A DNA stretch of 35,118 bases from a virus: positions 1 to 35,118 of IMG/VR virus record IMGVR_UViG_3300046003_007866. One strand, given 5' to 3'. Both the position numbers and the translations under genes were made by a program. A model generated the notes under the pieces. That model was not told the DNA's origin. It did not search any database and saw only the letters and a list, made by a program, of their open reading frames with translations. Of the stretch, positions 6,303 to 28,973 are shown one piece after another; the first letter of the stretch is position 1, and every line of letters begins with the position of its first letter.

Positions 6303-6457
6303 CGACCGACCACGCGACCGAGATGGCTTTGATCGAGGCCGCCCGCGCGAAGGCAGAGGCGGTGTGGCTCCGGTGCTCCTCCCCCGGTGCCCCGGCACCA
6401 TCCCCGAAGCCCGCGTCGCCGGCTATCCGCCGCCCTTCCGCCGAGGCTCGCGGGTAG
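6299..6457 (+). CDS. Small Pro/Ala-rich protein in lysis cassette
   Basis: This 52-residue ORF begins MTTDHATEMALIEAARAKAEA. Its ATG overlaps the stop of the preceding membrane protein by four bases (ATGA), the usual sign of coupled translation. The first 25 residues can form an amphipathic helix. The rest is Pro/Ser/Ala-rich and disordered. It ends inside the 3' end of the opposite-strand gene at 6423. No family is recognised. It could be a small lysis regulator. Confidence 0.4.
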   Translation: MTTDHATEMALIEAARAKAEAVWLRCSSPGAPAPSPKPASPAIRRPSAEARG

Positions 6458-6746
6458 GTCGCTGGCGCACCTTCGGCGCCCGGTGGCGTCGGGCCTCGAC
6501 GGCGGCCACGGCCTCATCGAGCGCGGCGAGGCTCGCAGCGTTCGCGGCCTCGACATCCTGTCGGCGAGCGGCCTCCTTGGCCTCGCGCTCGCGCTCGCGT
6601 CGCCGGTCAGACAGGTAGTCGCGGACGACGGCGGCGAGGATAGCGCCCACGACCAACAGGAGCGACGGCCGGAGGAGCGGTGCCCACGCTTCGCCCGCGA
6701 TCGTCAGCCACGCGGGCGCCTCGATGCGGTGGGGGGGCGTGGCCAT
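6423..6746 (-). CDS. Single-span membrane protein with charged coiled-coil tail, holin/spanin-like
   Basis: This 107-residue product lies on the strand opposite its neighbours. It has an N-terminal hydrophobic segment at about residues 25-42 (LLRPSLLLVVGAILAAVV), then a long Arg/Glu/Ala-rich helix (DYLSDRRREREREAKEAARR onward) and a basic tail. This N-in or N-out one-span plus coiled-coil layout is typical of i-spanins and some phage holin partners. GAGG lies 11 bases before the ATG. A run of seven C in codons 3-5 is a possible slippage site. Its 3' end overlaps the + strand small ORF by 35 bases. It could be a membrane lysis protein under separate control. Confidence 0.55.
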   Translation of the reverse strand: MATPPHRIEAPAWLTIAGEAWAPLLRPSLLLVVGAILAAVVRDYLSDRRREREREAKEAARRQDVEAANAASLAALDEAVAAVEARRHRAPKVRQRPTREPRRKGGG

Positions 6747-6779
6747 GCTGGAGGCTACCTCGGTGGAAAGGCGCCGTGC

Positions 6780-6791
6780 TACACTCGTCGG
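6780..6791 (+). promoter_or_regulatory. TANNNT box before endolysin
   Basis: TACACT lies 6 bases before ATG 6792. Confidence 0.4.
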
Positions 6792-7328
6792 ATGACCGAC
6801 ACCGAGCACCTCGACCAGATGCACCCATGGCTTCGCGAGCGGGTCGAGGCCGCGGTGGCCGACTGGCGAGCGAGCGCAGCCGAGGGCGATACGATTCGGA
6901 TCGTGGAGTCGGTGCGCTCGCTTGCCACCCAGCAGGGCTACTACCTCCGTGGCAAGTCGCGAGCCGATGGTGTGGACCGCTACAGCCTCCACCAGTTCGC
7001 CCCCGCCCTCGCCGCTGACGTGGCGGTGCTCCGCGACGGCAAGTACGTCACGAGCGCGGCCGATGGTGCATGGCAGCGGTGGGGAGCCGCCGCGAAGGCC
7101 CACGGCCTGGAGTGGGGCGGCGACTGGAGGGGGCTCGTTGACGCCCCCCATGTGCAGGCGGCCGAAGCCCAGCGTGTGCGCCTCCTCCAGCTCGCGGTGG
7201 GGGCGGTGCCGGATGGCCTGTGGGGGCCGGCGACAGAGGCGGCAATCCGCGGTCGCGGTGGAGTGCTCCGCGAGGGTCGCGGGTGGGCGAGAGTCACTCC
7301 CTCGGCGTGGGCCAAGGTGCTGGCGTGA
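6792..7328 (+). CDS. Endolysin, M15-type (VanY-like) peptidase with peptidoglycan-binding tail
   Basis: This 178-residue protein cuts the peptide part of peptidoglycan at lysis. The peptidase region runs from about 30 to 122. RYSLHQF contains His67, Asp76 follows in ALAADVAV, and the closing EWGGDW...DAPH segment supplies His120. These three match the zinc ligands of M15 L-Ala-D-Glu/D,D-peptidases. The spacing H-x8-D is two longer than the commonest H-x6-D pattern. Residues 125-155 (RLLQLAVGAVPDGLWGPATE) match a short peptidoglycan-binding type-1 repeat. There is no signal peptide, so release needs a holin. ATG 6792 is 6 bases after TACACT. The stop overlaps the next GTG (GTGA). Confidence 0.85.
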   Translation: MTDTEHLDQMHPWLRERVEAAVADWRASAAEGDTIRIVESVRSLATQQGYYLRGKSRADGVDRYSLHQFAPALAADVAVLRDGKYVTSAADGAWQRWGAAAKAHGLEWGGDWRGLVDAPHVQAAEAQRVRLLQLAVGAVPDGLWGPATEAAIRGRGGVLREGRGWARVTPSAWAKVLA

Positions 7329-9484: not shown

Positions 9485-10048
9485 CTACCCGGCCAACTGG
9501 CGCAGGGTGCGCGAGCGGCGGGCGGCAAGGGAGGGGCCGAGGAAGTCGCGGGCCTCGGAGTCGGAGTGCTCGTCGAGGATCGACTGCGCGCACGCGCGCG
9601 CCTCGAAGCCGGCGCCGCGGAGCGCCTGCGCGATCCGAGAGCGGGCCACGGTCGCCCGCGCCTCGCTGCCGGAGTCGGTCAGCACCGGCGCGTCCGACTC
9701 GGCGATGGCTCCGATCTCCGGATTGGAGAACGCGGCGAGCGGCACCTCGCGCTCGCGGCGGCGGTTCAGCTTTTCGAGCATGTCCTGCCGCGCCCGGCGG
9801 ACGAGCAGGTAAATCCAGTGTTCGGCCGGGGACAGGCTCGCGTCGAACGAGCGGTGGTTCCGGACGATGAACACGACCGCCTCGGCGAGAAGCTCGTCGC
9901 CATCCAACCGCTTGTCGGCGGCAGCGAGCCGCCACGCGCGTTTCGAGATCGCGGCGTAGTGATCGATGATGAACGCCCACGCGGCGGCCGTCTGGTCGTC
10001 GGTGAGCGGGGAGCGGTTCGAGGGGCGGGCGGTCGTCTTGTTGTCCAT
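9485..10048 (-). CDS. Sigma-70/ECF-like RNA polymerase sigma factor
   Basis: This is a 187-residue protein. Residues about 24-95 fit sigma region 2: AWRLAAADKRLDGDELLAEA (the DDLxQE-like part), then FIVRNHRSFDASLSPAEHWIY (the core -10 recognition part with W), then LLVRRARQDMLEKLNRRRER. A weaker C-terminal helical domain at 125-187 may be region 4. It lacks the long regions of a primary sigma, so an ECF-size phage sigma is the best call. GGAG lies 7 bases before ATG. The promoter carries the same dyad TAACCG-N5-CGGTTA as the other units, so autoregulation is possible. It could instead be a non-promoter-binding relative. Confidence 0.7.
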   Translation of the reverse strand: MDNKTTARPSNRSPLTDDQTAAAWAFIIDHYAAISKRAWRLAAADKRLDGDELLAEAVVFIVRNHRSFDASLSPAEHWIYLLVRRARQDMLEKLNRRREREVPLAAFSNPEIGAIAESDAPVLTDSGSEARATVARSRIAQALRGAGFEARACAQSILDEHSDSEARDFLGPSLAARRSRTLRQLAG

Positions 10049-10085: not shown

Positions 10086-10148
10086 CCGTACCGTAACCGA
10101 TACCCGGTTATAACGCCTACCCCGCGAGGCGTTTTTCTTTCGCTTTTT
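10086..10148 (-). promoter_or_regulatory. Dyad promoter/operator of the sigma-like gene (variant)
   Basis: The dyad TAACCG-N5-CGGTTA (10094-10110) is perfect and lies 46 bases before the sigma-like ATG. It lacks the T6 tract and the GGGCGGG leader seen at the other sites; instead an A-rich and hairpin segment lies upstream. It could be the autoregulatory version of the regulon's operator. Confidence 0.6.
10112..10137 (+). terminator. T-tailed hairpin on + strand upstream of sigma-like gene
   Basis: Stem AACGCCT/AGGCGTT with an eight-base loop, followed by a T5 run and further T-rich sequence. It points along + although no + gene precedes it closely. Confidence 0.55.
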
Positions 10149-11972: not shown

Positions 11973-12242
11973 TCAGGGCGAGAACGCTGCGGCCGCGTCG
12001 ATCGCGTCGATCGCGTCGCGGATCACGTTCGCCTTGATCCAGTTGTCGCAGACCTCGTGAACGGCCACGTCTTGCCACAAGCGGGCGACGATCAGGTCCG
12101 CGATCGTCCGGCGACGTTCGGCGCCGACGGACGGGTCGTCCGCGCGCCGAGCGAAGGCGGTCAGGACCACGACCTCGGCCGGGTCGACGGCCGCGAACGG
12201 GAGGCCGGCCACGAGGGCGGCGAGGTCGACGGGGCGGCTCAC
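11973..12242 (-). CDS. Small helical protein of unknown function
   Basis: This is an 89-residue product with GTG start overlapping the stop of the gene at 12239 (GTGA). It is an amphipathic helical protein with one Cys and several acidic/Ala-rich helices toward the C-terminus (NVIRDAIDAIDAAAAFSP). It is the second gene of the dyad-promoter unit at 12.5 kb. A GC-rich hairpin follows its stop. Confidence 0.5.
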   Translation of the reverse strand: MSRPVDLAALVAGLPFAAVDPAEVVVLTAFARRADDPSVGAERRRTIADLIVARLWQDVAVHEVCDNWIKANVIRDAIDAIDAAAAFSP

Positions 12243-12451
12243 GCGCGCACCGAGCGGTGAGCGATGGACCGGCCGGCGCCGTTCGGCATGACGTGCGAGA
12301 ACGGCGTCTCGTTCACCCACTCGACCACCGCCGAGGTTGGTCCGGTGACGATGATGAAGCCGAAGTCGAACGGGCACTCGCAGATGTCGAGGCCGAGGTC
12401 GATCGCGGCGTTGATCAGGGCGGTCGGGTTCGTGGTCGGGGAGGCGTTCAT
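12239..12451 (-). CDS. Small protein from a composite-promoter unit
   Basis: This is a 70-residue product, ATG 12451, first residues MNASPTTNP. The leader and first codons (CCCCGGACGACAAG then ATGAACGCC) nearly match those of the gene at 32797, though the protein bodies differ. It contains a Cys-x-Cys at residues 24-26 (DICECPFDFG). Function is unknown. Confidence 0.55.
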   Translation of the reverse strand: MNASPTTNPTALINAAIDLGLDICECPFDFGFIIVTGPTSAVVEWVNETPFSHVMPNGAGRSIAHRSVRA

Positions 12452-12482
12452 CTTGTCGTCCGGGGTTGGGCGCGGGTTCCTT

Positions 12483-12549
12483 CCCGCCCCCACTACATAG
12501 CCGGCTAACGGTTACCCGGTAGGGTCCAGAGCGAAGATTCCCGAAAAAA
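12483..12549 (-). promoter_or_regulatory. Composite promoter: T6 + dyad + GGGCGGG leader (before 12451 gene)
   Basis: T6 (12549-12544) is 35 bases from the dyad (12514-12498). The dyad here is TAACCG-N5-CGGCTA in the sense direction. GGGCGGG follows 8 bases later. A hairpin with GCGGG stem and AAGGAA loop at 12487-12472 starts the message. Confidence 0.7.
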
Positions 12550-12580
12550 GTTTCGGCCGGCGACCATCGGCCGCCGGCCG
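12544..12580 (-). terminator. Intrinsic terminator after VWA gene
   Basis: A nine-base stem CGGCCGGCG/CGCCGGCCG with a nine-base loop follows the VWA stop and leads into AAAC then T6 (reading the - strand). The T6 is also the first element of the promoter for the 12451 gene. Confidence 0.85.
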
Positions 12581-12592
12581 CCACGGGCCGGG

Positions 12593-14200
12593 CTACCCCG
12601 GCAGCACCTCGGCCGCCGCGTCGTCGCGGGCGCCGCCGGCTACCCGGTCGAGGTCGATCACCTTGTCGCAGATGTCGCGCATCGCGCCCGTGACCGACCC
12701 GCCATTCAGGGCGAGGCCGAACACCCGCAGGCCCTTCTTCTTGCAGTCGAGGAGCCGGAGCATCGTCGCGTCGTCGCAGCCGGCCTGCCCGTCGGTCACG
12801 AACACGAGGTCGGCGCGCTCGTCGGCGATGCCGCTGGGCAGGCCGTCGAGGGCGAGCCGGAGGACCGGGCCGAAGTCGGTCCCGCCGTGGACGCCGTACC
12901 CGGCGACGTCGAGCGCCGCGTCCGCGACCTTGCCGCCGCCGAGCTTGACCGGCGCGCCGCCCTTGCCGTAGCGGTCGACCGGGATCGAGGTCGCGTTCCC
13001 CTTCGCGTCGACGTGGCGGACGGCCAGCGGGCGGGTGTCGAAGTCGACCACCGTCACCGGGCGACGGTCCTTCGCCGCCACGCCGATGCAGGCGATCCCA
13101 ACCGCGCGCGCCCAGTTGTGAGGGTCGCCGGACATCGACCCGGAGCAGTCGAGCAGGACGACCATCGGGCCGCGCCCGAGCTTCTCGGTGCCTTCGAGCC
13201 GGTACTGCAGGAGGCTGCGCTCGGCGATGTCCTTCAGGGCGAGGCGCCGGAGGATCGGGTGGCGAAGCCGCGCCAGTTGGGCGGGCATCGCCCGGCCGAG
13301 GTCGCCGCCGCGCTCGATGTCGACGACCTCGCTGCGGGCGTTCGGGTCGCGGCGCTCGATCCGCTTGCGGTCCTGAATCCGGGCCAGCCGGCCGGCGCGA
13401 CGGAGAATCTCGCGCAGGTTGCGGTCCTTCACCAGCCGCTCGGCGAGCTTCATCCGGGCGGGGTCGCCGTGATCCTTCGTCGCCGGAGCCGATTCGAGGC
13501 CGGGGGCGAGGCCCGCGAGCCCGTCCTTCCGCTCGGCGTCCTGCCGGGCCGCCTTCGAGCAGGCGGCGCGGAGGGCGGCGCGGAGGCGGTCCTCGCCAGA
13601 CGGCCCGTTGCCGTTCGGAGCGGGCGCGCCGTCCTCCTCGGCCTTGTGCTCGGCGGCAAGCTGCTCGATGATCGCGGGGAGCCGCGGGGCGATCTCGCCG
13701 CTCATGTCGGCGGCGGCGAGCGCGGCGCAGTCGGGGTCGCCCGTGACGGCGGCGCGGAGGTCGGAGAACTCCTGCAGGTTGTCGAGCGCGCCGTGGGCGG
13801 CCGGCACCCAGCCCGGCGCGTCGGCCGTCGGCTGGTCGAGCTTGCCGGGGTTGCCGTACAGGCGGCTGAACAGTTCGGATACGAACGTGTCGGCCGCGCG
13901 GTTCGTCGCCGTCTGCTCGGCGAACGTCGGCTCCTTGACGAGCCGGCCCTCCTTCTCCGCGCGCTCCGTCTCGACCTTGACGGTCGCGTCGTAGACCGCC
14001 TTGGCGACCGCGTCGACCGCGCCCGTGAGCGCCGTGCCGGGCTTGCGGACGTCGTAGAGGTGGCGCTCCCACTTCTGGACGTCGTAGACGTGCGCCGGGG
14101 GCGCGCCGGCCGGGCGGACCGTGCGGGCGCTGCCGCCGGCCGAGTCGAGGTCGGTGATCTGTTCTTCGGTCGTGGCGGCGATGTCGGTCGGGGTGGTCAT
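12593..14200 (-). CDS. VWA-domain protein, ViaA-like partner of the MoxR ATPase
   Basis: This is a 535-residue protein. The helical N-terminal part (1-330) includes an acidic/Pro spacer near 200. The C-terminal VWA domain from about 340 has the MIDAS motif DCSGSMSG (DxSxS), and the third MIDAS position lies near GTDFG (about residue 455), with DLVFVTDGQ following. This architecture and the neighbouring MoxR ATPase match the RavA-ViaA class, in which the AAA+ ring remodels targets bound by the VWA subunit. Its own promoter dyad precedes it, with AAGGAG 10 bases before the ATG. CobT-like or other VWA partners are alternatives. Confidence 0.75.
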   Translation of the reverse strand: MTTPTDIAATTEEQITDLDSAGGSARTVRPAGAPPAHVYDVQKWERHLYDVRKPGTALTGAVDAVAKAVYDATVKVETERAEKEGRLVKEPTFAEQTATNRAADTFVSELFSRLYGNPGKLDQPTADAPGWVPAAHGALDNLQEFSDLRAAVTGDPDCAALAAADMSGEIAPRLPAIIEQLAAEHKAEEDGAPAPNGNGPSGEDRLRAALRAACSKAARQDAERKDGLAGLAPGLESAPATKDHGDPARMKLAERLVKDRNLREILRRAGRLARIQDRKRIERRDPNARSEVVDIERGGDLGRAMPAQLARLRHPILRRLALKDIAERSLLQYRLEGTEKLGRGPMVVLLDCSGSMSGDPHNWARAVGIACIGVAAKDRRPVTVVDFDTRPLAVRHVDAKGNATSIPVDRYGKGGAPVKLGGGKVADAALDVAGYGVHGGTDFGPVLRLALDGLPSGIADERADLVFVTDGQAGCDDATMLRLLDCKKKGLRVFGLALNGGSVTGAMRDICDKVIDLDRVAGGARDDAAAEVLPG

Positions 14201-14211
14201 TGGCGTTTGCT

Positions 14212-14279
14212 CCTTACCCGTCTGTAGTAACCGATAGCCGGTTAGCGTGCGGCGCTTACGGTCAAGAAACCCGAAAAAA
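14212..14279 (-). promoter_or_regulatory. Composite promoter without leader hairpin (before VWA gene)
   Basis: T6 (14279-14274) is 35 bases from a perfect TAACCG-N5-CGGTTA (14244-14228). Downstream there is GACGGG followed by AAGGAG, not the GGGCGGG hairpin of the others. The T6 doubles as the tail of the MoxR terminator. Confidence 0.65.
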
Positions 14280-14335
14280 GAGTCGGGCCGGTTCGCGCAG
14301 GCCGGAGAACAACCCGCCGCGCGAACCGGCCCGAC
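14274..14335 (-). terminator. Strong intrinsic terminator after MoxR ATPase
   Basis: A 17-base perfect stem (GTCGGGCCGGTTCGCGC with its complement, 14282-14298 and 14319-14335) is followed by a T6 run. It separates MoxR from the VWA gene, so the pair is not one simple operon. Confidence 0.9.
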
Positions 14336-14347
14336 CGAGGTTCTCGG

Positions 14348-15496
14348 CTACAGGCTGATGCCGAGGCGGTTCGCGACCTCGCGGCCGACCTCCCGCTGCA
14401 TCCCTGCGACCTTGTCGGCGTACTCGGTGATCTCGGCGTCGCTCGTGCCGAGCGCCCGGATCGACTTCGCGATCTTCTGGAGTTCGCTGTTCGCGTTGCC
14501 GAGCGCCGCCGTCGCCTGCTGCCCGGTCGCCTTCCGGTCGATCTTGCCGACCATCTCGACCGCGGCGTCGTAGAGCTTCATCGCTTCGCCGAGCTTCGGC
14601 GAGACGAACTGCGCGACGACCGCGCCGACCGTGGCCCGCTCCTCGACGGTGCGCCAGAGGACGTGCGCGAGGATCGACAGGTCGCGCGGCGTGGCGATGT
14701 CGCGGCCGTCGAGCACCGCCGAGGCGCGGACGAGGCTCGTCGCCTGCCGCCAGCGTCGGTCGCTCGCCGTGATCCCGTGCTCGCGTTCGAGTTCGTCGGC
14801 GAGGTCCATCATCGCGTCCTGCACGACGTCGGGAACCTGCACCGCGTCGCAGGCGGTGCGGAGGACCGCGACGTCGGCGGGCGAGAGCTTCGCCGCCACC
14901 TTCTTGCCGCCGCCGAAGAACAGGGACCGCTTCGCCGAGCGGTTCTTGATCGGGCTCACCCAGTGGCACAGAAGGAACCGGTCGCGCAGGGCGTTGAGCG
15001 AGTCGTCGGCCGGGAACTCGTTGGAGGCGCCGACGCAGAGCTTCAGGGGCACCTTCGACCGGGTGCCGCCGTTGTCGAACTCGCCTTCGTTGAGGATCGT
15101 CAACAGCGCGTTCAGGATGCTGCTGTTCGCCTTGAACACTTCGTCGAGGAAGCCGACCTCGACGGTCGGGAGGTAGCCGGCGGTCACGCGGCGGTACTCG
15201 TCGCGCTCCAACCCTGCGAGCGAGTACGGGCCGAACACCTCCTCGGGCACCGTGTACTTCGTCATCAGCACTTGGAAGAACGACGACCCGAGCGCGGCCG
15301 TGAACAGGCCGGTCAGGTAGCTCTTGCCGGTGCCCGGAGGGCCGAGCAGAAGTACATGCTGCCCGGCGACGAGCGCCGCGGCGAGCGACTTGATCTCGGC
15401 GTCGCGCTCGACGACGGCGCCGCGCAGGTCGCGGATCAGGGCTTGGAGGTTGGCGGTCGCGGTGGCGAGGTCGGTGGTGTTCAGGTTCGCGGTCAT
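14348..15496 (-). CDS. MoxR-family AAA+ ATPase (RavA/CobS-like)
   Basis: This is a 382-residue protein. Walker A GPPGTGKS lies near residue 50, Walker B VGFLDEVFK near 113, sensor-1 GASNEFP near 153, and the following NALRDRFLLCHWV is the MoxR arginine-finger region. These are classic MoxR/RavA elements of a hexameric AAA+ remodelling ATPase. It pairs with the VWA protein that follows. GGAG lies 11 bases before ATG 15496. It has its own composite promoter and is followed by the strongest terminator in the window. Confidence 0.88.
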   Translation of the reverse strand: MTANLNTTDLATATANLQALIRDLRGAVVERDAEIKSLAAALVAGQHVLLLGPPGTGKSYLTGLFTAALGSSFFQVLMTKYTVPEEVFGPYSLAGLERDEYRRVTAGYLPTVEVGFLDEVFKANSSILNALLTILNEGEFDNGGTRSKVPLKLCVGASNEFPADDSLNALRDRFLLCHWVSPIKNRSAKRSLFFGGGKKVAAKLSPADVAVLRTACDAVQVPDVVQDAMMDLADELEREHGITASDRRWRQATSLVRASAVLDGRDIATPRDLSILAHVLWRTVEERATVGAVVAQFVSPKLGEAMKLYDAAVEMVGKIDRKATGQQATAALGNANSELQKIAKSIRALGTSDAEITEYADKVAGMQREVGREVANRLGISL

Positions 15497-15536
15497 GGTC
15501 GTTGTTCTCCGTTCGGGTTCGAGGCGCGGGTTCCTT

Positions 15537-15603
15537 CCCGCCCCCATGTAGTAACCGTCTATCGGTTACCGTAAAGGGCGGCGGGCGAAGATTCCAGAAA
15601 AAA
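15537..15603 (-). promoter_or_regulatory. Composite promoter before MoxR ATPase
   Basis: T6 (15603-15598), 35-base spacer, perfect dyad TAACCG-N5-CGGTTA (15568-15552), 8 bases, GGGCGGG, and a GCGGG-AAGGAA-CCCGC hairpin (15541-15526). No stem precedes the T6, so it is not a normal terminator. Confidence 0.7.
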
Positions 15604-15606
15604 GGT

Positions 15607-15831
15607 TCACGGGCGGCGGGCGCGGACCGGGTTCGGCCGGAGATCGACGTCCACCACGGCGAACGGGTCGCCGTTCGACAGCGTGCCCCGGTCGCGGATC
15701 GACACCGACCCGTCGCGGCCGGCGAACACCTCGCCGCCGTACAGCCGACGCGCCTCGTCGAGCGTGATCCCGAGCCCGTCCGCGAGTTCCGCGAGCAGGT
15801 CGTCCTCGGTCATGGTTCCGTCGGGGTTCAC
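15607..15831 (-). CDS. Small protein of unknown function
   Basis: This is a 74-residue product with GTG start overlapping the TGA of the WGR gene (GTGA). The internal ATG 15813 is an alternative start. It has a helical acidic N-terminus (TEDDLLAELADGLGITLDEARR) and a beta-like middle. It is the last gene of the 17.4-15.6 kb unit. No family is recognised. Confidence 0.5.
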   Translation of the reverse strand: MNPDGTMTEDDLLAELADGLGITLDEARRLYGGEVFAGRDGSVSIRDRGTLSNGDPFAVVDVDLRPNPVRARRP

Positions 15832-16367
15832 GCCGCCCTCAGTACGGCGACGAGGTAACGGTCGCCCTCGCGGATCACGCCCCACAGGCTCCCGTCGGCA
15901 GCAAGGTATGGGATCACGGGCTCGCCCCGGACGTCGGCCGCGACGTCTGGCAGGTCGAGCTTGACGAGCCCGACCTCGCCCGCCGTGTTCGCCAGCCGGT
16001 CGAGCGTGGTCGGCCGCCACGACGCGAGGGCGACGAGCGCGGCGAGCGACGTCGCCGCTGGCCGCCGGGTCGGGAGCCGGGCGGCGGCGTCCTGCCGGTA
16101 GCCCTTCCGCGCCTTCTCGTGCGCGCGGTCGAGCGCCTCGCTGTCGAGCACGCCGGGCTGCGCCTGCCCCTTGCCGCCGATCACGCCCCACCGGACGGTC
16201 GCCGAGAACCCGACGACCGACGACGCCTCCCACCACTTCGCGCTCTTGCCGCTCAGGTTCGCCGGGTTGTCGCCGACGAAGGTGAGCCGGACGCGCCACG
16301 GGCTCCCGCGGCGGGCGAGTTCGCGCGCCTCGCTGATCGTGCTGATCGGGATGTCGGCCGCGTTCAC
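15828..16367 (-). CDS. WGR-domain protein
   Basis: This is a 179-residue product, GTG start overlapping the upstream stop. Residues about 28-92 (VRLTFVGDNPANLSGKSAKWW, then ATVRWGVIGGKGQ, then AHEKARKGYR) match the WGR pattern: conserved W and G, then GxxGQ, then K-GYR near the end. WGR domains bind nucleic acid or regulate PARP- and MolR-type proteins. No PARP catalytic part is present. The C-terminal half (95-179) is unrecognised. Link to MoxR/VWA genes in the same block suggests a DNA- or RNA-sensing partner. Confidence 0.6.
   Translation of the reverse strand: MNAADIPISTISEARELARRGSPWRVRLTFVGDNPANLSGKSAKWWEASSVVGFSATVRWGVIGGKGQAQPGVLDSEALDRAHEKARKGYRQDAAARLPTRRPAATSLAALVALASWRPTTLDRLANTAGEVGLVKLDLPDVAADVRGEPVIPYLAADGSLWGVIREGDRYLVAVLRAA
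15854..15863 (-). promoter_or_regulatory. GACCGTTACC site in 3' end of WGR gene
   Basis: It lies in the codons for Asp-Arg-Tyr, 22 bases before GTG 15831. It may be chance coding. Confidence 0.25.
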
Positions 16368-16498
16368 GAGCGCACCGCCACGCGGGCCACGACCTCGGCG
16401 AACCGGGCCTCCCGCCTTGCCGCCGAGGCGGCCCGGAAGCCGACCACGAGCCGCGCCACTTCAACCAGCGCGAGGACCGCGCAGAGCGCCGGGATCAC
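16364..16498 (-). CDS. Small single-span membrane protein
   Basis: This is a 44-residue product, GTG start and TGA stop overlapping both neighbours (GTGA at each end). One hydrophobic segment occupies residues 2-20 (IPALCAVLALVEVARLVV), followed by an Arg/Ala-rich tail. The tail charge predicts N-out/C-in insertion. Its overlaps place it firmly in the operon from the gene at 17403. Confidence 0.5.
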   Translation of the reverse strand: MIPALCAVLALVEVARLVVGFRAASAARREARFAEVVARVAVRS

Positions 16499-17403
16499 GC
16501 CGCCTCCCCGACGTCGCCCGCGAGCAGGGCGCGCGCCCGGTCCTTCGCCGCGTCGAGCTTCTCGCGCAGGCCGTCGAGGGTCACGCCGAGGGCCAGCGCG
16601 TACAGTTCGCCGCGCTCGTTGATCTCGGCGAAGTCGGCGAGGATCGACGCGACCGCGTGGCTCGGGATCGTGCGGGTCGCCCCTTCCCACTCGGCCAGCC
16701 GGGCGCCGAAGTCGTTGAGAGCGTCGGCGAGGTTGTCGCCAGCCCGGCGCTCGATGGTCGCGCGGGTCGTCGCGTCGCTCGGGTCGATCGCCGCCGCCTC
16801 GAACTCGCTCGACCCGATCCGACGCACGACCGCCTGCAGCCGGCGCAGTTCGGGCTCGTAGCAGCGGGGCACGAAGGCCACGCCGCCGGACCGACGGACC
16901 GGCAGGGCGCCCATCGCCGAGAGGCGGGCGCTGACGAGGTTCGGCCGAATCCACTCGTGATCGAGGAAGGCCGCCGCCGACCGCACGTCCTCGTCGACCG
17001 AGTCGGCCTCGGCGGTCCCGTTGCCGACCCAGCGGTCGCGGCCGATGTTCCCGGCGCTGTCGACGTCGTAGGCGACGACGTCGACCTGCGTCCACTTCAC
17101 CTCGTTCTCGCTGACGCGCTCGCGGCGCAGGACGCCGACCTCGATCCGGCCGCCGGTCGCCGTCGCGAGGTCGTAGACGACCTCGGCGCGGTAGCGGTCC
17201 GCGTTGCCGCGACCCTGCGTCCAGCCGCGTGCGGCGCGGCGGACCGCCTGAACCTGATCGATGTCGGGGACGGCGGCCGGGTCGAGGCCCTCGTCGCCGA
17301 GGATGTCGCGCAGGTTGGCGGGCGTGATCTTCGTGTCGTTCAGCTCCCACCACGTCAGGAGGCCGATCGAGAGGTTCGCGGTGACGGTCGAGGGGGTGAT
17401 CAT
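16495..17403 (-). CDS. DUF6744-like protein
   Basis: This is a 302-residue protein. ATG 17403 is preceded by GGAG about 10 bases away. Segments such as LLTWWELN at the N-terminus, then MGALPVRRSGGVAFVPRCYEP, and a long helical region (IERRAGDNLADALNDFGARL) recall DUF6744 proteins of phages and plasmids. I cannot confirm this by search. It is the first gene of a unit with its own composite promoter and with the membrane, WGR and small downstream genes. Confidence 0.5.
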   Translation of the reverse strand: MITPSTVTANLSIGLLTWWELNDTKITPANLRDILGDEGLDPAAVPDIDQVQAVRRAARGWTQGRGNADRYRAEVVYDLATATGGRIEVGVLRRERVSENEVKWTQVDVVAYDVDSAGNIGRDRWVGNGTAEADSVDEDVRSAAAFLDHEWIRPNLVSARLSAMGALPVRRSGGVAFVPRCYEPELRRLQAVVRRIGSSEFEAAAIDPSDATTRATIERRAGDNLADALNDFGARLAEWEGATRTIPSHAVASILADFAEINERGELYALALGVTLDGLREKLDAAKDRARALLAGDVGEAA

Positions 17404-17440
17404 GGTCTTGTTCTCCGGTTCAGGTCGTTGCGGGTTCGTT

Positions 17441-17507
17441 CCCGCCCCATCATAGTAACCGATAGCCGGTTAGCGTAAAGGCAGCGGGGTGACGATTCTC
17501 GAAAAAA
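17441..17507 (-). promoter_or_regulatory. Composite promoter before DUF6744-like gene
   Basis: T6 (17507-17502), 35 bases, perfect dyad (17472-17456), 8 bases, GGGCGGG, then hairpin GCGGG-AACGAA-CCCGC (17445-17430). The -10-like TACTAT lies between dyad and GGG. Confidence 0.7.
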
Positions 17508-17531
17508 GTTTCGGCGGGGTCGGCCCCGCCG
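17502..17531 (-). terminator. Intrinsic terminator after 17804 gene
   Basis: Stem CGGCGGGG/CCCCGCCG with loop CCGA, then AAAC and T6. Located a few bases after the TAG at 17538. Confidence 0.85.
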
Positions 17532-17537
17532 GGGCGG

Positions 17538-17804
17538 CTACCGGGCCGCCTTCCGGCGGGCGGCGCCGATCGCGTCGAGGTCGTTCCGGGTGAGGCCCGA
17601 CAGGCCCACGTCGCTGGCGACGAAGGCCGCCCTGACCTTCTTTCCGGTGGCCGAGAGCGCGAACCCGTCGACGAGGCGACCGTCGGCGCGGAGGGCGGCG
17701 TAAGCGGCCGACCCCTCGTAGTATTCGGTGCCGAGCGTGGTCCAGTTGGCGCCGCGACCGGGGTTGTTGGCGACGTAGGCGAGGATGCGGGCTTCGAGGT
17801 TCAT
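17538..17804 (-). CDS. Small protein, possible winged-helix
   Basis: This is an 88-residue product starting MNLEARILAYVANNPGRGANW. The helix-turn-strand order up to about residue 55 (ALRADGRLVDGFALSATGKKV) would suit a small winged helix, which is an inference. It is a monocistronic unit with its own promoter, and a strong terminator stem follows its stop. AAGGAG lies upstream of the ATG. Confidence 0.5.
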   Translation of the reverse strand: MNLEARILAYVANNPGRGANWTTLGTEYYEGSAAYAALRADGRLVDGFALSATGKKVRAAFVASDVGLSGLTRNDLDAIGAARRKAAR

Positions 17805-17834: not shown

Positions 17835-17901
17835 CCCGCCCCAACTACATATCCGGCTAACGGTTACCGGGTAGGGTCGGGAGCGAAGATTCCCGAAAAA
17901 A
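17835..17901 (-). promoter_or_regulatory. Composite promoter before 17804 gene
   Basis: T6 (17901-17896), 35 bases, dyad TAACCG-N5-CGGATA (17866-17850), 8 bases, GGGCGGG. The hairpin has a six-base GCGGGG stem (17839-17817). The T6 has no preceding - strand gene or stem. Confidence 0.68.
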
Positions 17902-17913
17902 GTTTCGACGGGC

Positions 17914-17924
17914 TACGCTCGCGC
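17914..17924 (+). promoter_or_regulatory. TANNNT box before RecU-like gene
   Basis: TACGCT lies 5 bases before ATG 17925; no Shine-Dalgarno. Confidence 0.35.
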
Positions 17925-18452
17925 ATGACCACGAAGCCGCTCTCGTCGACCGCGAACCTCGGCAAGCCGTTCGAGGAGGCGCTCGAAGCGATGCACGCGC
18001 TCTACAACGCGGGCGGGCGGGCGGCGGTCACGCGCATCCCCGCGCCCATGCAGCCGGTCGGCAAGGCGACGAGGGGCGTGTTCCCGGCGATCTACGTCAA
18101 GCGGGGCGCGCCCGACTTCCACGCGCAGGCCGGCGGGCACTCGCTCCTGTTCGACGCGAAGTCGACGATCGACCCCGACCGCTGGCCGCTCGCCGACCTC
18201 CCCGGCCACCAAGCCGCCGCGTTCGACCGGCACGAGGCGCAGCGCGGGCGGGCGTTCGTGCTCCTGCTGCTCGGCCGGGTCGTCTACCTGCTCCCGTGGG
18301 CCGCGCTCGCGCCTCGCTACCATCGCTGGTCCGCCGGGCTCGCGGCCCGCGGCGAGGCCTCGCTGACCGTCGCCGACTGCGACCGGCTCGGTCGCCGGTG
18401 CGCGTGGGTCGACTGGCTTCCGACCGCGACCGCGTGGCTCGCTACCAGTTGA
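17925..18452 (+). CDS. RecU-like Holliday-junction resolvase
   Basis: This is a 175-residue nuclease. The pattern NLGKPFEEAL (residues 11-20), then RIPAPM (38-42), GAPDFHAQAGGHSLLFDAKS (61-80) and GHQAAAF (94-100) follows RecU: acidic helix, substrate Pro-rich strand, D64...D77-x-K79 active centre, and the conserved HQ. RecU cuts four-way junctions, resolving recombination intermediates in replicating phage DNA. The start codon ATG 17925 has no Shine-Dalgarno and lies 5 bases after TACGCT. Confidence 0.75.
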   Translation: MTTKPLSSTANLGKPFEEALEAMHALYNAGGRAAVTRIPAPMQPVGKATRGVFPAIYVKRGAPDFHAQAGGHSLLFDAKSTIDPDRWPLADLPGHQAAAFDRHEAQRGRAFVLLLLGRVVYLLPWAALAPRYHRWSAGLAARGEASLTVADCDRLGRRCAWVDWLPTATAWLATS

Positions 18453-24117: not shown

Positions 24118-25599
24118 ATGCAAGCCGATTTCCCGGTGGCGCGACCGCGCCCGAACTCCGTCAACGCCGACCGCTACGAGGGGGTGCCGATCCTCGGCCT
24201 GCCCGCCGACCCGCGCGTCGTGCTCGTGTCGACGTCGGAGCGCGGTGCGCTCGGTTGCGACCGGCGCTGGCTCTACGGCTACGGGCTCGGGATGCGCGGC
24301 GCGCCGTCCGACGCCATGACCTACGGGACCGCGTGGCACGAGGTCATGGAGGACGTTCACCGGTTCCTGATGGCCCTGACGCCGCCTCCGTCGGCTGGGC
24401 CGACCGCGACTCCGACGCCTTACGAGGACAGCTACCTCGAAGCGTGCGGGCTCTGTCTCGTGTCGCCGATCGTCGCGACGCCGTCCGCCCCGTGCCCGTG
24501 TTGCGGCTCGGACGGCTCCGCGCCCGGTGACGGGCCGCTGCTTCGCATCGAGTCGCGCTGGCGCGCCGAGGCCGCCGCGGGGAAGCTTGCGGCCGGCGAG
24601 GAAGGCGAGGAGGAGGAGCCGGGCGAGTCCATCGAGCAGCGGGTCGAGCGCCTCCGGCGTGCGGCGCAGGGTTGGCTCCGCGTGAATGGTCGGGTCGGCT
24701 TGCCCGGCTACGACGTGGTCGGCGTCGAGTTGGCGGTTGCCTGCCCCGTGCGGTCGCCCGGCTCGACGAAGCCCTACAACCCCGAGGTGCCGCTCGCGTT
24801 CGTGCCGGGCGGCTGGCGGTTCGCGCGGCCCGACGACCCGTCGGCGACCGTCCGGCGGGTGCGGTGGCCGTGGTATTGGATCGGCCGGGTCGACGCCGTG
24901 TTCCGCTCGCGCACCGACGGCTCGCTGCTCGTCGGCGAGTGGAAGTCGTCGCGCGACCCGACCGGCTACGTCCGAGGGATCACGGTCGACCCGCAGACCT
25001 ACGGCTACGGCGCGATGCTCGACCACGTCCGCGACCACTTCGGCGGCGGGCGCGTCCGCGGGTTCCTGTTCGACGTCGCGTCGTCGGTGTTGCAGCGCGA
25101 CCCGGACACGCTCGCCAAGGGTGGGCTCTCGGTCGCGATGAACCGAACCGTGCCCTCGTGGCGGTTCGAGGCGGCGGTCGTTGCCCGCGGCGAGGACCCG
25201 ACCTCGGAGAAGTACGCCGACCACATCTGCGCGCTCCGCGAGCAGAAGGACCCGCGCCTGTACGTCCGCGAGCCGGGCGGCATCGGGGCGATCGACCTCG
25301 CCGCGTGGCACGTCGAGACGTTCGCGATGGCGAAGCGGATCGCAGAGAACCGCCGGAACGTGGTCGACGCGATCGACGCCGGCTCCGTCGCCCTGCTGTT
25401 CCCGCGTCAGCCGGTCTGCCGCCAGCCGGGCGGGTTCTGCAGCTACCGCGGCCCGTGCTCGGCCGACGGGCCGGACGCCCGGCGCGCTTTCCCTGTCCGC
25501 GTCGATCCCGTCTGGACCGACCCGAACCTTCCGCTCGCCGCCGGAAACGACGCGGCGCCCGTTACCCAACCCTCGGAGAAAGAAGAATCATGGCTCTGA
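24118..25599 (+). CDS. PD-(D/E)XK nuclease, Cas4/AddB-like with Cys cluster
   Basis: This is a 493-residue protein. Motif I His74 is in YGTAWHEVMEDVH. Asp and EWK lie at WIGRVDAVF (about 254-262) and VGEWKSS (about 275-281), and QTYGYGAML follows. Cys47 (GCDRRW), Cys434, Cys441 and Cys447 (CRQPGGFCSYRGPC) give a four-Cys Fe-S arrangement like Cas4/AddB. A separate Cys-rich insert (C110, C113, C126, C128, C129) may bind zinc. It is probably the phage recombination exonuclease. It overlaps the Sak4-like gene by 10 bases. Confidence 0.78.
   Translation: MQADFPVARPRPNSVNADRYEGVPILGLPADPRVVLVSTSERGALGCDRRWLYGYGLGMRGAPSDAMTYGTAWHEVMEDVHRFLMALTPPPSAGPTATPTPYEDSYLEACGLCLVSPIVATPSAPCPCCGSDGSAPGDGPLLRIESRWRAEAAAGKLAAGEEGEEEEPGESIEQRVERLRRAAQGWLRVNGRVGLPGYDVVGVELAVACPVRSPGSTKPYNPEVPLAFVPGGWRFARPDDPSATVRRVRWPWYWIGRVDAVFRSRTDGSLLVGEWKSSRDPTGYVRGITVDPQTYGYGAMLDHVRDHFGGGRVRGFLFDVASSVLQRDPDTLAKGGLSVAMNRTVPSWRFEAAVVARGEDPTSEKYADHICALREQKDPRLYVREPGGIGAIDLAAWHVETFAMAKRIAENRRNVVDAIDAGSVALLFPRQPVCRQPGGFCSYRGPCSADGPDARRAFPVRVDPVWTDPNLPLAAGNDAAPVTQPSEKEESWL
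25557..25566 (+). promoter_or_regulatory. GCCCGTTACC site inside nuclease C-terminal codons
   Basis: Encodes A-P-V-T in the disordered tail of the nuclease; 23 bases before ATG 25590 (Sak4-like). Confidence 0.5.
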
Positions 25600-26582
25600 A
25601 CTACGACACCGTCACCGACATCGACACGCACACGAAGATGCTCCTGTTCGGACCGTCCGGCTCCGGCAAGAGCTACACGGCGGCCAAGGCCGGCGGCACG
25701 AGCGAGAGCCCGGAGGGGCGCGTCGCGATCCTCCTGCTCGAACCGAACGGGCTCGCCTCGATCCGAGCGAGCAACCGGCACGCGGTCGTCGTGACCGCCT
25801 ACGACCCGAAGCGATACGGCAAGGTCTACGCGTGGGAGGTGGTCGAGCAGTTCATTCGCGACGCGATGGACGGCACGCTCGCCGCGGCCGGCGTCAAGAC
25901 GATCGTGGTTGACAGCCTGACCGAGTTGCAGCGCGTGTGGCGCGACCGGTGCCTGATCGACGACGGCGTGGAGCCGAAGCGGCTCGCGCTCCACAAGATG
26001 ACGCAGCAGCAGTGGGGCGTCTGGACCGAGCGGTTCCGCCGCGTCCTCCGCACCTTCCGCGACTTGCCGATGAACGTGATCGCCATCGCCCTCGTGCAGA
26101 ACGAGACGGACGACGACGGGAACATCACGGCGATCGTGCCCGCCTTCGAGGGCAAGAAGTTGCCGAACGAGGTGGCGCAGTTCTACTCGGCCGTCGGGTA
26201 CTGCTTCAAGAAGGAGGTCAAGCTCACGCTCGGCGAGGGCGAGGCGCAGCGCACGGAGACGAAGATCGAGCACCGCGTCCTGTTCCAGACCGGGGGCAAG
26301 CTCGTTGTGAAGCCCTTTCCCGGCCTCGCCGCCGTCGAGGCGCCCGACCCGAAAATCTGGCACGCGAAGTACCTCGCCGCGCTCGCGGTGTCGGACGCCG
26401 ACCCGGCGCCCGAGGCCGAGCAGCAGGCCGCGCCCGAAGTGGTCGCGGTCGAGCAGGCGGCCGTCCAGCAGGCCGAGGCGGAAACGAAGCCGGCGCCCGT
26501 TACCCAAGCAGCGGAACCGGCGCCCACGCCGGCCCGCAAGAAGCGCGGGGCGGCAGGCGAAGAAGCCACGGCCGCCAAGTAG
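25590..26582 (+). CDS. Sak4-like P-loop ATPase (AAA_24)
   Basis: This is a 330-residue protein. Walker A GPSGSGKS is at 21-28, and Walker B-like KTIVVDSLTEL at about 104-114. A RecA-like core of Sak4/AAA_24 type, found with phage exonuclease and SSB genes, fits. It probably anneals or loads recombination filaments on ssDNA. The last about 65 residues are Ala/Glu/Pro-rich and disordered. The ATG lies inside the end of the nuclease ORF (10-base overlap). GGAG precedes it by 11 bases. Confidence 0.8.
   Translation: MALNYDTVTDIDTHTKMLLFGPSGSGKSYTAAKAGGTSESPEGRVAILLLEPNGLASIRASNRHAVVVTAYDPKRYGKVYAWEVVEQFIRDAMDGTLAAAGVKTIVVDSLTELQRVWRDRCLIDDGVEPKRLALHKMTQQQWGVWTERFRRVLRTFRDLPMNVIAIALVQNETDDDGNITAIVPAFEGKKLPNEVAQFYSAVGYCFKKEVKLTLGEGEAQRTETKIEHRVLFQTGGKLVVKPFPGLAAVEAPDPKIWHAKYLAALAVSDADPAPEAEQQAAPEVVAVEQAAVQQAEAETKPAPVTQAAEPAPTPARKKRGAAGEEATAAK
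26495..26504 (+). promoter_or_regulatory. GCCCGTTACC site inside Sak4-like C-terminal codons
   Basis: Encodes A-P-V-T in the disordered tail; 108 bases before SSB-like ATG 26613. Confidence 0.45.
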
Positions 26583-27920: not shown

Positions 27921-28973
27921 ATGACGAAGCACGCCCTGAGCGCCGGGACGATCCACGTCGGCGACTGGCTCGAAGCCGACCTCGCCCCCGGCTACACCCT
28001 CGCGATCGTGGACGGCCCCTACGGCATGGGAAAGGCGGCATGGGATCGCGTGAGCATTGACGACCTCGCCGACTGGTACGCGCCGCACGTCGCCCGCGTG
28101 TCCGCCCTGCTCGCCCCGTCGGCGTCGGTCTACCTGTGGAACACCGCCGAGGGGTGGTCGCGGCTCGACCCGGTGATGCGGGCGGCGGGGTGGACGTTTC
28201 GGGCGCTGGTGACGTGGGACAAGGGGATCGCCTCGCTTGCAGGGAAGGGCGTCGAGGCGCTGACCGGGTGGCCCGACGTGACGGAAGTGGCTGGGTTCTA
28301 CCAGCGGGAACCCAGCGAGGTTGATCTGTGGAATCGGCGCGGAGACGCGCACCCCGTTCGGCGGTATCTCGACGAAGCGCGAGAGCGCGCCGGGCTCACG
28401 AACGCGCAGGTGGACGACGCGATCGGGGTTCGCGGAATGGCGAGACACTGGTTCTCGTGGACGCAGTGGTGCCTTCCGAGCCCGGAGCGATACGCGCAAC
28501 TTCAGCGACTTCTTCCCGGTCTTGATCGAGAACTTGGCGATCTTCGCGCCGAACACGCGGACATATGGGCTCGACATCGTTCAGAGTGGGAGCAGATCAG
28601 GGCGCCATTCGCCCCCCCAATGGCGACCACGAATGTTTGGGCTGAACTGCCCGTTGCCGGCCCGGAACGGCTTCGTCTCGCTGACGGTTCGCCTCTCCAC
28701 CAATGCCAAAAGCCCCTGCTGTTCGCCGAGCGCATGATCCGCGCCTCGACCCGCCCCGGTGAGCGCGTGCTCGTCCCGTTCGGCGGCACCTGTCGCGAGG
28801 CTGTGATCTGCGAGTGGCTGGCGCGAACGACGCCGGCCGATGCGCGCGGCTACGACGTGTGCGAACTGAACGCGGACGGGGTGGACTACATCGGGCCGGT
28901 GCTCGCGCAGATACGCGGGGAGGACATGCGACCGAGGGCGGCGGGACAGGTCCGGTTGTTCGGGGGCTCCTGA
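27921..28973 (+). CDS. DNA methyltransferase with inserted HTH-like segment
   Basis: This is a 350-residue protein. DGPYG (31-35) replaces the usual DPPY catalytic motif IV. The S-adenosylmethionine-binding motif near 285 is VPFGGTCREAV. Motif order IV then I is that of beta-type N6-adenine or N4-cytosine methyltransferases. Residues 145-200 (LDEARERAGLTNAQVDDAIG, then MARHWFSW) look like the extra HTH segment seen in many phage methyltransferases. AGGA lies 5 bases before the ATG. The stop TGA overlaps the next ATG by one base. Confidence 0.8.
   Translation: MTKHALSAGTIHVGDWLEADLAPGYTLAIVDGPYGMGKAAWDRVSIDDLADWYAPHVARVSALLAPSASVYLWNTAEGWSRLDPVMRAAGWTFRALVTWDKGIASLAGKGVEALTGWPDVTEVAGFYQREPSEVDLWNRRGDAHPVRRYLDEARERAGLTNAQVDDAIGVRGMARHWFSWTQWCLPSPERYAQLQRLLPGLDRELGDLRAEHADIWARHRSEWEQIRAPFAPPMATTNVWAELPVAGPERLRLADGSPLHQCQKPLLFAERMIRASTRPGERVLVPFGGTCREAVICEWLARTTPADARGYDVCELNADGVDYIGPVLAQIRGEDMRPRAAGQVRLFGGS

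What the first reader, a model, noticed from the sequence alone, without database searches (positions are those of the whole stretch)
11973..17804. Phage-borne RavA/ViaA-like pair with WGR, DUF6744-like and membrane proteins in separate regulated units
A MoxR AAA+ ATPase and a VWA protein lie beside a WGR-domain protein, a one-span membrane protein and a DUF6744-like gene. Each unit has its own copy of the composite promoter and mostly its own terminator, so stoichiometry is probably tuned. MoxR-VWA pairs remodel protein complexes; the WGR protein could be a nucleic-acid-binding adaptor. The combination may be a chaperone-like or conflict (defence or anti-defence) system not described as such.
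Basis: partly seen in the sequence, partly recalled or inferred. Interest (0 to 1): 0.8.

Follow-up and report, generated by a model that had tools for sequence, protein, structure and literature searches.

The report
Mobile-element MoxR–VWA–DUF6744 three-gene machine
A probable phage carries a protein-remodelling ATPase, its usual partner and a third protein of unknown function (DUF6744), and these three genes travel together across many viruses, plasmids and even archaea, so the unknown protein very likely belongs to the ATPase machine.

Summary
The genes are real: DUF6744 (17403-16495), a 44-aa membrane ORF, a weak WGR protein, MoxR (15496-14348) and VWA (14200-12593), all on the minus strand. 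The repeated promoter-like element is also real: 8 copies, none expected by chance at 0-1 mismatch. Five copies head the units of this region. DUF6744, the membrane ORF, WGR and a 74-aa ORF form one coupled unit.

DUF6744 is a recurrent third partner of a RavA/ViaA-like MoxR-VWA pair. Starting from DUF6744, 45 of 58 non-redundant clusters have MoxR and VWA alongside. Starting from MoxR alone, 79 of 80 viral contigs have VWA and 64 of 80 have DUF6744 (55 of 68 non-redundant, 54 co-directional, three gene orders). The module spans Bacillota, Actinomycetota, Cyanobacteriota, Archaeoglobales, plasmids and phages, and the three proteins co-diverge (Mantel r 0.69-0.75). WGR and the membrane ORF do not recur.

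DUF6744 models confidently (pLDDT 86.5) without a clear PDB relative. I found no paper naming DUF6744. Best reading: a mobile-element remodelling ATPase with DUF6744 as dedicated adaptor or client, perhaps serving DNA replication or recombination. The target is unknown. A conflict role is neither shown nor excluded.

The parts
17538..17804 (-). 88-aa ORF, own promoter element; no relative found
   Evidence: GC3 0.93; no Pfam, PHROG or NCBIfam hit; no relative in the loci compared
16495..17403 (-). DUF6744 protein, 302 aa: dedicated third partner of the MoxR-VWA pair
   Evidence: Pfam PF20529 2.9e-11; AF2 model pLDDT 86.5, pTM 0.83; linkage to MoxR-VWA
16364..16498 (-). 44-aa ORF with one hydrophobic stretch, GTGA overlap with the DUF6744 stop
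   Evidence: sequence; maximum 19-residue Kyte-Doolittle mean 2.37, GC3 0.91
15828..16367 (-). 179-aa protein with a sub-threshold WGR domain
   Evidence: Pfam WGR 18.7 bits against cut-off 22; 18.4 bits in the whole-record scan; does not recur with the module
15607..15831 (-). 74-aa ORF, GTGA overlap with the WGR gene
   Evidence: GC3 0.93; no relative found
14348..15496 (-). MoxR AAA+ ATPase, 382 aa, RavA-type core without the LARA or RavA_C domains
   Evidence: bpMoxR 2.1e-49, AAA_lid_8 4e-18; Walker A and B, sensors and Arg-finger positions invariant; RavA 4e-90; control RavA has LARA and RavA_C
12593..14200 (-). VWA protein, 535 aa: helical N-terminus, ViaA-like linker, C-terminal VWA with MIDAS D351xS353xS355, T441, D470
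   Evidence: phrog_24053 1.5e-30; ViaA 3.9e-13; MIDAS conservation
12239..12451 (-). 70-aa ORF headed by its own promoter element
   Evidence: GC3 0.94; element at 12498
17850..17866 (-). palindrome of the composite promoter-like element, before the 88-aa gene
   Evidence: 1 mismatch
17456..17472 (-). palindrome of the composite element, before the DUF6744-TM-WGR-74aa unit
   Evidence: 0 mismatches
15552..15568 (-). palindrome of the composite element, before MoxR
   Evidence: 0 mismatches
14228..14244 (-). palindrome of the composite element, before VWA
   Evidence: 0 mismatches
12498..12514 (-). palindrome of the composite element, before the 70-aa gene
   Evidence: 1 mismatch
17512..17531 (-). 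terminator-like hairpin at the end of the 88-aa unit
14282..14335 (-). inverted repeat followed by a T run after MoxR, terminator-like
   Evidence: self match on the opposite strand, E 1.4e-5; sequence
12554..12580 (-). terminator-like hairpin after VWA

Best explanation
The core is a three-component machine carried by mobile elements: a RavA-type MoxR AAA+ ATPase, a ViaA-like VWA partner and DUF6744. In the proposed mechanism MoxR forms a hexameric remodelling motor, and the VWA protein with its intact MIDAS site docks a target or stimulates the motor, as ViaA does for RavA. DUF6744 (a compact alpha/beta domain plus a three-helix bundle) is the dedicated third subunit that gives specificity, as adaptor or as the client being remodelled. 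It would take the place of E. coli RavA's LARA targeting domain, which this MoxR lacks. The likely client is a protein assembly used in the element's DNA replication or recombination stage, not the virion. The WGR, membrane and small ORFs are lineage-specific additions in this phage. Shown: the genes, conserved catalytic and MIDAS residues, linkage, co-divergence and a confident DUF6744 model. Inferred: hexamerisation, complex formation, the adaptor or client role, and the replication/recombination target (which I put at about 0.3 on its own).
For: Linkage holds from both directions. Starting from DUF6744, MoxR and VWA lie alongside in 45 of 58 non-redundant clusters (my count of the list), and four more keep one partner, some at contig ends. 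Starting from MoxR alone, VWA is in 79/80 and DUF6744 in 64/80 viral contigs; after clustering, 55/68 with DUF6744, 54 co-directional, median gap 356 nt, gene order 35/18/2, so it is not one frozen block. The next most frequent neighbour family occurs in 14/80 viral loci and in 8/60 of the plasmid, genome and viral loci. DUF6744 itself is rare (over cut-off in 4/396 Actinomycetota and 12/398 Bacillota genomes), so chance linkage is negligible. Distances of the three proteins correlate across 80 non-redundant modules (Mantel r 0.69-0.75, 0/500 permutations). In 12 host genomes the module MoxRs score 387-551 bits against the module profile, while the other MoxR matches score at most 85 bits, with one exception at 219. 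Catalytic and MIDAS residues are conserved. The MoxR profile's best PDB match is RavA over residues 8-332, outside LARA. Neighbours in some loci include Sak4-like annealing protein, RecU, SSB-like DUF669, DnaN and helicases, and the window also carries Sak4-like, exonuclease, RecU and primase-helicase genes. MoxR-VWA pairs are also reported on IncP-7 and SXT/R391-type elements (PMC2642839).
Against: DUF6744 occurs without MoxR-VWA in three 150-200 kb viral contigs. In HVTV-1 it lies about 15 kb from a distant MoxR-VWA pair. About a fifth of the viral MoxR-VWA pairs show no DUF6744, although some of these are cut by contig ends. DUF6744-linked MoxRs are not one clean clade: RavA and a few unlinked pairs nest among them. 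Recombination genes are neighbours in a minority of loci only. Related lineages sharing ancestry contribute to the Mantel correlation. No interaction, ATPase activity or phenotype has been measured.
Confidence: 0.6

Rival explanations
1. Virion assembly chaperone: the pair matures tail or capsid proteins, as reported for Acidianus two-tailed virus and proposed for group 2.2 jumbo phages.
For: MoxR-VWA is linked to tail development in ATV and proposed for virion assembly in jumbo phages (PMC7824862). The phages and viral contigs here carry a related pair.
Against: The module sits on plasmids, in one case next to conjugation genes, and beside dnaN, ssb and helicase genes. Proteins clustered around it are replication or recombination functions or unknown, with no recurrent structural gene identified.
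Confidence: 0.12
2. Conflict system: anti-defence or host takeover on mobile elements, or a defence carried by them, in the style of the MoxR-vWA ternary conflict systems.
For: Mobile-element carriage over several phyla. Ternary MoxR-vWA systems are proposed conflict systems (PMC7159879) and VMAP versions associate with CRISPR loci (PMC10910872).
Against: None of the module proteins scanned matches PADLOC meaningfully. No variable effector, peptidase or toxin recurs next to the module. All three parts are conserved, and fixed partners are unlike the hypervariable effectors of those systems.
Confidence: 0.2
3. Metal-cofactor or respiratory enzyme maturation, as RavA-ViaA with Frd/Nuo or CoxD-CoxE with CO dehydrogenase.
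For: The closest solved relative is RavA and VWA matches CoxE-like models.
Against: No metalloenzyme recurs next to the module. LARA and RavA_C domains are absent. Hosts range from archaea to actinomycetes.
Confidence: 0.06
4. DUF6744 is a hitch-hiker: an unrelated mobile-element gene that merely sits in the same gene cluster.
For: DUF6744 occurs alone in some viruses and some pairs lack it.
Against: Linkage in both directions, three gene orders, co-direction in 54/55 and no other neighbour coming close; co-divergence.
Confidence: 0.06

Closest known systems
RavA-ViaA (E. coli yieN-yieM)
   Same: AAA core and lid of MoxR (RavA 4e-90) and the linker plus VWA region of ViaA; adjacent co-directional genes
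   Different: No LARA or RavA_C domain; a third gene, DUF6744, takes part in the cluster; carried by phages and plasmids
MoxR-vWA ternary conflict systems (VMAP, iSTAND, FtsH, beta-propeller), Kaur et al. 2020
   Same: MoxR plus vWA plus a dedicated third protein; the best Pfam model is bpMoxR, which RavA also matches
   Different: Third protein is DUF6744; no effector domains, peptidases or DGR seen in the parts examined; present in phages and plasmids
MoxR-VWA chaperone pairs of viruses (ATV; jumbo group 2.2 phages; haloviruses Hardycor1 and HVTV-1; Bacillus phage 0305phi8-36)
   Same: Virus-borne AAA+/VWA gene pair
   Different: Those reports describe two components; DUF6744 was not recognised, although HVTV-1 gene 25 is a DUF6744 member
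MoxR-VWA pair of pCAR1 and SXT/R391-type elements (PMC2642839)
   Same: Conjugative-element-borne MoxR and VWA of unknown function
   Different: CbbQ-type MoxR as described there; DUF6744 not tested in those elements
Moorella phage MTATph1 CDS0114-CDS0119
   Same: Same gene order DUF6744 - small ORFs - MoxR - VWA; 28%, 41% and 33% identity
   Different: No WGR detected; small ORFs have no Pfam match; annotated only as ATPase and hypothetical proteins

Membership tests
MoxR AAA+ ATPase family | MoxR-type AAA core with Walker A, Walker B, sensor 1, Arg finger, sensor 2 and AAA_lid | tested here: met
   bpMoxR 2e-49, AAA_5 2e-24, AAA_lid_8 4e-18; invariant K58, D118-E119, N159, R173, R247-R248
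RavA (equivalog) | LARA and RavA C-terminal domains; NCBIfam equivalog score above 681 bits | tested here: not met
   196.6 bits only; no LARA or RavA_C in the window MoxR, both found in the Salmonella control
ViaA (equivalog) | NCBIfam equivalog score above 500 bits | tested here: not met
   49 bits over the linker and VWA start
VWA with MIDAS | DxSxS ... T ... D metal site | tested here: met
   D351, S353, S355, T441, D470 invariant or nearly so
DUF6744 (PF20529) | Pfam gathering score of 27 bits | tested here: met
   43.3 bits, E 2.9e-11
WGR domain (PF05406) | Pfam gathering score of 22 bits | tested here: not met
   18.7 and 18.4 bits; hallmark RWGxIGxxGQ present by eye, so a divergent WGR remains likely
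MoxR-vWA ternary conflict system | Third component VMAP, iSTAND, FtsH-type AAA or beta-propeller | tested here: not met
   The recurrent third gene is DUF6744; no other recurrent partner in 60 plasmid, genome and viral loci plus 80 further viral loci
MoxR-vWA ternary conflict system | Role against invading elements | not testable with these tools
   PADLOC shows no meaningful hit; a functional assay is needed
Remodelling chaperone machine | MoxR, VWA and DUF6744 form a complex with ATP-driven activity | not testable with these tools
   Inferred from linkage and homology only

The most novel reading that the evidence does not exclude
MoxR-VWA-DUF6744 is a hitherto unrecognised class of ternary MoxR-VWA machine, spread over phages, plasmids and archaeal elements. 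DUF6744 is its own targeting subunit, and the machine remodels replication or recombination complexes (or host proteins) during establishment of the element.
Probability: 0.35. Interest if true: 0.78.

Novelty: new variant of a known kind. Interest (0 to 1): 0.62.

Why it matters
Viral MoxR-VWA pairs have been noted repeatedly, mostly without a known client. This links a widespread set of them to one specific partner family and gives DUF6744, a family with no description that I could find, a testable role. If the three form a machine, it is a shared tool of otherwise unrelated mobile elements in bacteria and archaea. The minimal sets, for example from Alicyclobacillus, Moorella phage MTATph1 or Streptomyces plasmids, are small enough to reconstitute.

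Tried and rejected
- Peptide-pattern scans of viral contigs with the window's own VWA or MoxR, with MTATph1 DUF6744, or with two-sequence alignments, found nothing; wider alignments were needed.
- WGR recurrence: tested four ways, not found next to the module. One WGR match lies on the same contig in Planobispora but about 23 kb away. A weak one in the record of L204 lies several kb away.
- Fold of DUF6744: no clear PDB match with the whole model or the N-terminal domain (Foldseek; VIA). Helical-bundle matches to BAG or spectrin-like domains are tied with a designed bundle and mean little. The only strong matches are four viral predicted proteins, one being HVTV-1 gene 25.
- One clade of DUF6744-linked MoxR: not obtained, 4 label changes on the tree.
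- RavA/ViaA membership: rejected by the equivalog cut-offs and missing LARA.
- Literature: no paper in the held library names DUF6744. The only paper holding MoxR, VWA, phage and WGR together mentions WGR in an unrelated context.
- Two searches failed for stop codons in guessed coordinates; the first was rerun with corrected coordinates, the second was dropped.

Full report
What is in the window. The record is a 35,118-bp virus contig (G000) of 71% GC. Gene calls by GC3 bias and the sequence give, on the minus strand: an 88-aa ORF (17804-17538), DUF6744 (17403-16495), a 44-aa ORF with one hydrophobic stretch (16498-16364), a 179-aa WGR-like protein (16367-15828), a 74-aa ORF (15831-15607), MoxR (15496-14348), VWA (14200-12593) and a 70-aa ORF (12451-12239). 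The four genes from DUF6744 to the 74-aa ORF overlap by GTGA, which suggests translational coupling (sequence). Domain searches support DUF6744, MoxR and VWA firmly and WGR only below the Pfam cut-off.

Regulation. The palindrome TAACCG-N5-CGGTTA occurs at 10094, 12498, 14228, 15552, 17456, 17850, 19229 and 32844 with 0-1 mismatch. Twenty second-order Markov simulations gave none at that stringency. In most copies a CTTTTTTC tract lies about 30-45 nt upstream. Each copy stands about 30-60 nt before a start codon (my reading of the coordinates). Five head the units of this region, one heads a sigma-factor-like gene (10048-9485; phrog_1740 1.9e-5) and two head genes elsewhere. The element is therefore a genome-wide promoter or operator, not a feature of this gene set. 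No sigma-70 consensus promoter is found. Hairpins at three unit ends look like terminators, but their number is not above shuffles.

The pair. The MoxR core is RavA-type: a profile of 30 relatives finds RavA in the PDB at 4e-90, over RavA residues 8-332. It lacks the LARA and RavA_C domains, which the same search finds in the control RavA, and scores 197 bits against a 681-bit equivalog cut-off. The VWA protein matches ViaA over the linker and the start of the VWA domain and keeps the MIDAS residues. It works like RavA-ViaA in its parts but is not a member of either equivalog.

DUF6744 is the third partner. In Moorella phage MTATph1 the order DUF6744 - small ORFs - MoxR - VWA is the same. A search of plasmids with its DUF6744 found 20 records; the VWA search of plasmids found a VWA close by in most of these, and six neighbourhoods read in full all contain the three genes. 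A scan of 84,980 prokaryote species for DUF6744 gave 47 loci, and a viral scan 10 more. With the family-based sample from Actinomycetota and Bacillota there are 58 non-redundant DUF6744 clusters. By my count of the list, 45 have MoxR and VWA within 6.5 kb on the same strand and four more have one of them.

Reverse test. A viral scan with the MoxR alignment alone kept 80 loci of 139. VWA is present in 79 and DUF6744 in 64, or 65 with an iterated profile. At 80% MoxR identity there are 68 clusters: 55 have DUF6744, 54 on the same strand. Gene orders are DUF6744-MoxR-VWA (35), MoxR-VWA-DUF6744 (18) and MoxR-DUF6744-VWA (2). No other gene family comes close: the next occurs in 14 of 80 viral loci, and in 8 of 60 loci of the other set. 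Pairwise distances of the three proteins correlate at r 0.69-0.75 over 80 non-redundant modules. In 12 host genomes the module MoxR is sharply separate from the other MoxR matches (387-551 bits against at most 85, one exception at 219). The tree still places RavA and a few unlinked pairs within the larger group, so the association was probably gained or lost more than once.

WGR and the membrane ORF are local. The WGR family is not found over its cut-off in 50 viral module records. In 40 further records the few matches are not adjacent to the module. Relatives of the window's WGR, 44-aa, 74-aa and 88-aa products were not found in any compared locus.

Structure. DUF6744 of the window models well with 41 sequences (pLDDT 86.5, pTM 0.83): an alpha/beta part to about residue 205 and a three-helix bundle at 210-302. 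Neither the whole model nor the N-terminal part alone (pLDDT 86.2) has a clear PDB match. Four viral predicted proteins match strongly. One is an HVTV-1 protein of 383 residues; gene 25 of HVTV-1, of that length, is found by the sequence profile at 1.3e-26, with homologues in related haloviruses. HVTV-1 also has an AAA/VWA pair, but elsewhere in its genome and only remotely similar.

Mechanism. The anatomy suggests a remodelling motor (MoxR) with a VWA docking or stimulating partner and DUF6744 as specificity subunit or client. Conserved catalytic and MIDAS residues are shown; complex formation and target are inferred. Context favours DNA metabolism over virion assembly. Some neighbourhoods hold dnaN, ssb or DUF669-type SSB, helicases, RecU or Sak4-like genes, the window itself has Sak4-like, exonuclease, RecU and primase-helicase genes, and a plasmid with conjugation genes carries the module. 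These neighbours are a minority of loci, so this step is only about 0.3 likely. MoxR-VWA pairs of unknown function on pCAR1, R478, Rts1, SXT and R391 (PMC2642839) are a possible parallel; from memory, the SXT region also holds bet/exo-type recombination genes, which I did not test.

Known against new. MoxR-VWA pairs in viruses are known (PMC7824862, PMC7911831, PMC2147016), and ternary MoxR-vWA conflict systems are known with other third parts (PMC7159879). I found no description of DUF6744 as a partner, and no paper in the held library names it. I therefore call it a new variant of a known kind. Limits: many viral contigs are fragments or may be plasmids or proviruses, the library is not the whole literature, and nothing here measures function.

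Noticed in passing
window 9485-10048 (-), element at 10094: Small sigma-70-like protein (phrog_1740 1.9e-5) preceded by its own copy of the palindromic element; a similar small protein at L143:4067-4564 has Sigma70_r2. Candidate phage sigma factor for the element's regulon.
   Followed up: partly
window 10094, 19229, 32844: Copies of the palindromic promoter-like element outside the module, so it is a genome-wide regulatory signal.
   Followed up: partly
window 24118-25599, 25605-26582, 17901-18452, 28814-31228: PD-(D/E)XK exonuclease, Sak4-like annealing protein, RecU resolvase and primase-helicase: a recombination and replication set in the same contig.
   Followed up: yes
L140 9815-10963 (HVTV-1 gene 25): Hypothetical protein of haloviruses is a DUF6744 member (1.3e-26), conserved in eight Haloarcula virus records; the virus has a separate, distant MoxR-VWA pair.
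   Followed up: partly
L067, L068, L069: Viral contigs of 150-200 kb with DUF6744 but no MoxR or VWA of this family anywhere in the record.
   Followed up: partly
L139 and L138: Cyanobacterial plasmids with a related MoxR-VWA pair preceded by an unannotated 440-470 aa protein in the place where DUF6744 would be; possibly another third partner.
   Followed up: no
L136 758-1600: Aphanizomenon phage CL131: an LPD29-domain protein directly upstream of MoxR-VWA-dnaN, in the DUF6744 position.
   Followed up: no
window 27921-28973 (+): N6_N4 DNA methylase (2.7e-11).
   Followed up: no
window 6387-7328 (+): Endolysin-like M15 peptidase (phrog_2649 3.2e-19; Peptidase_M15_4), supporting a phage origin; the probable start lies inside the ORF.
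   Followed up: no
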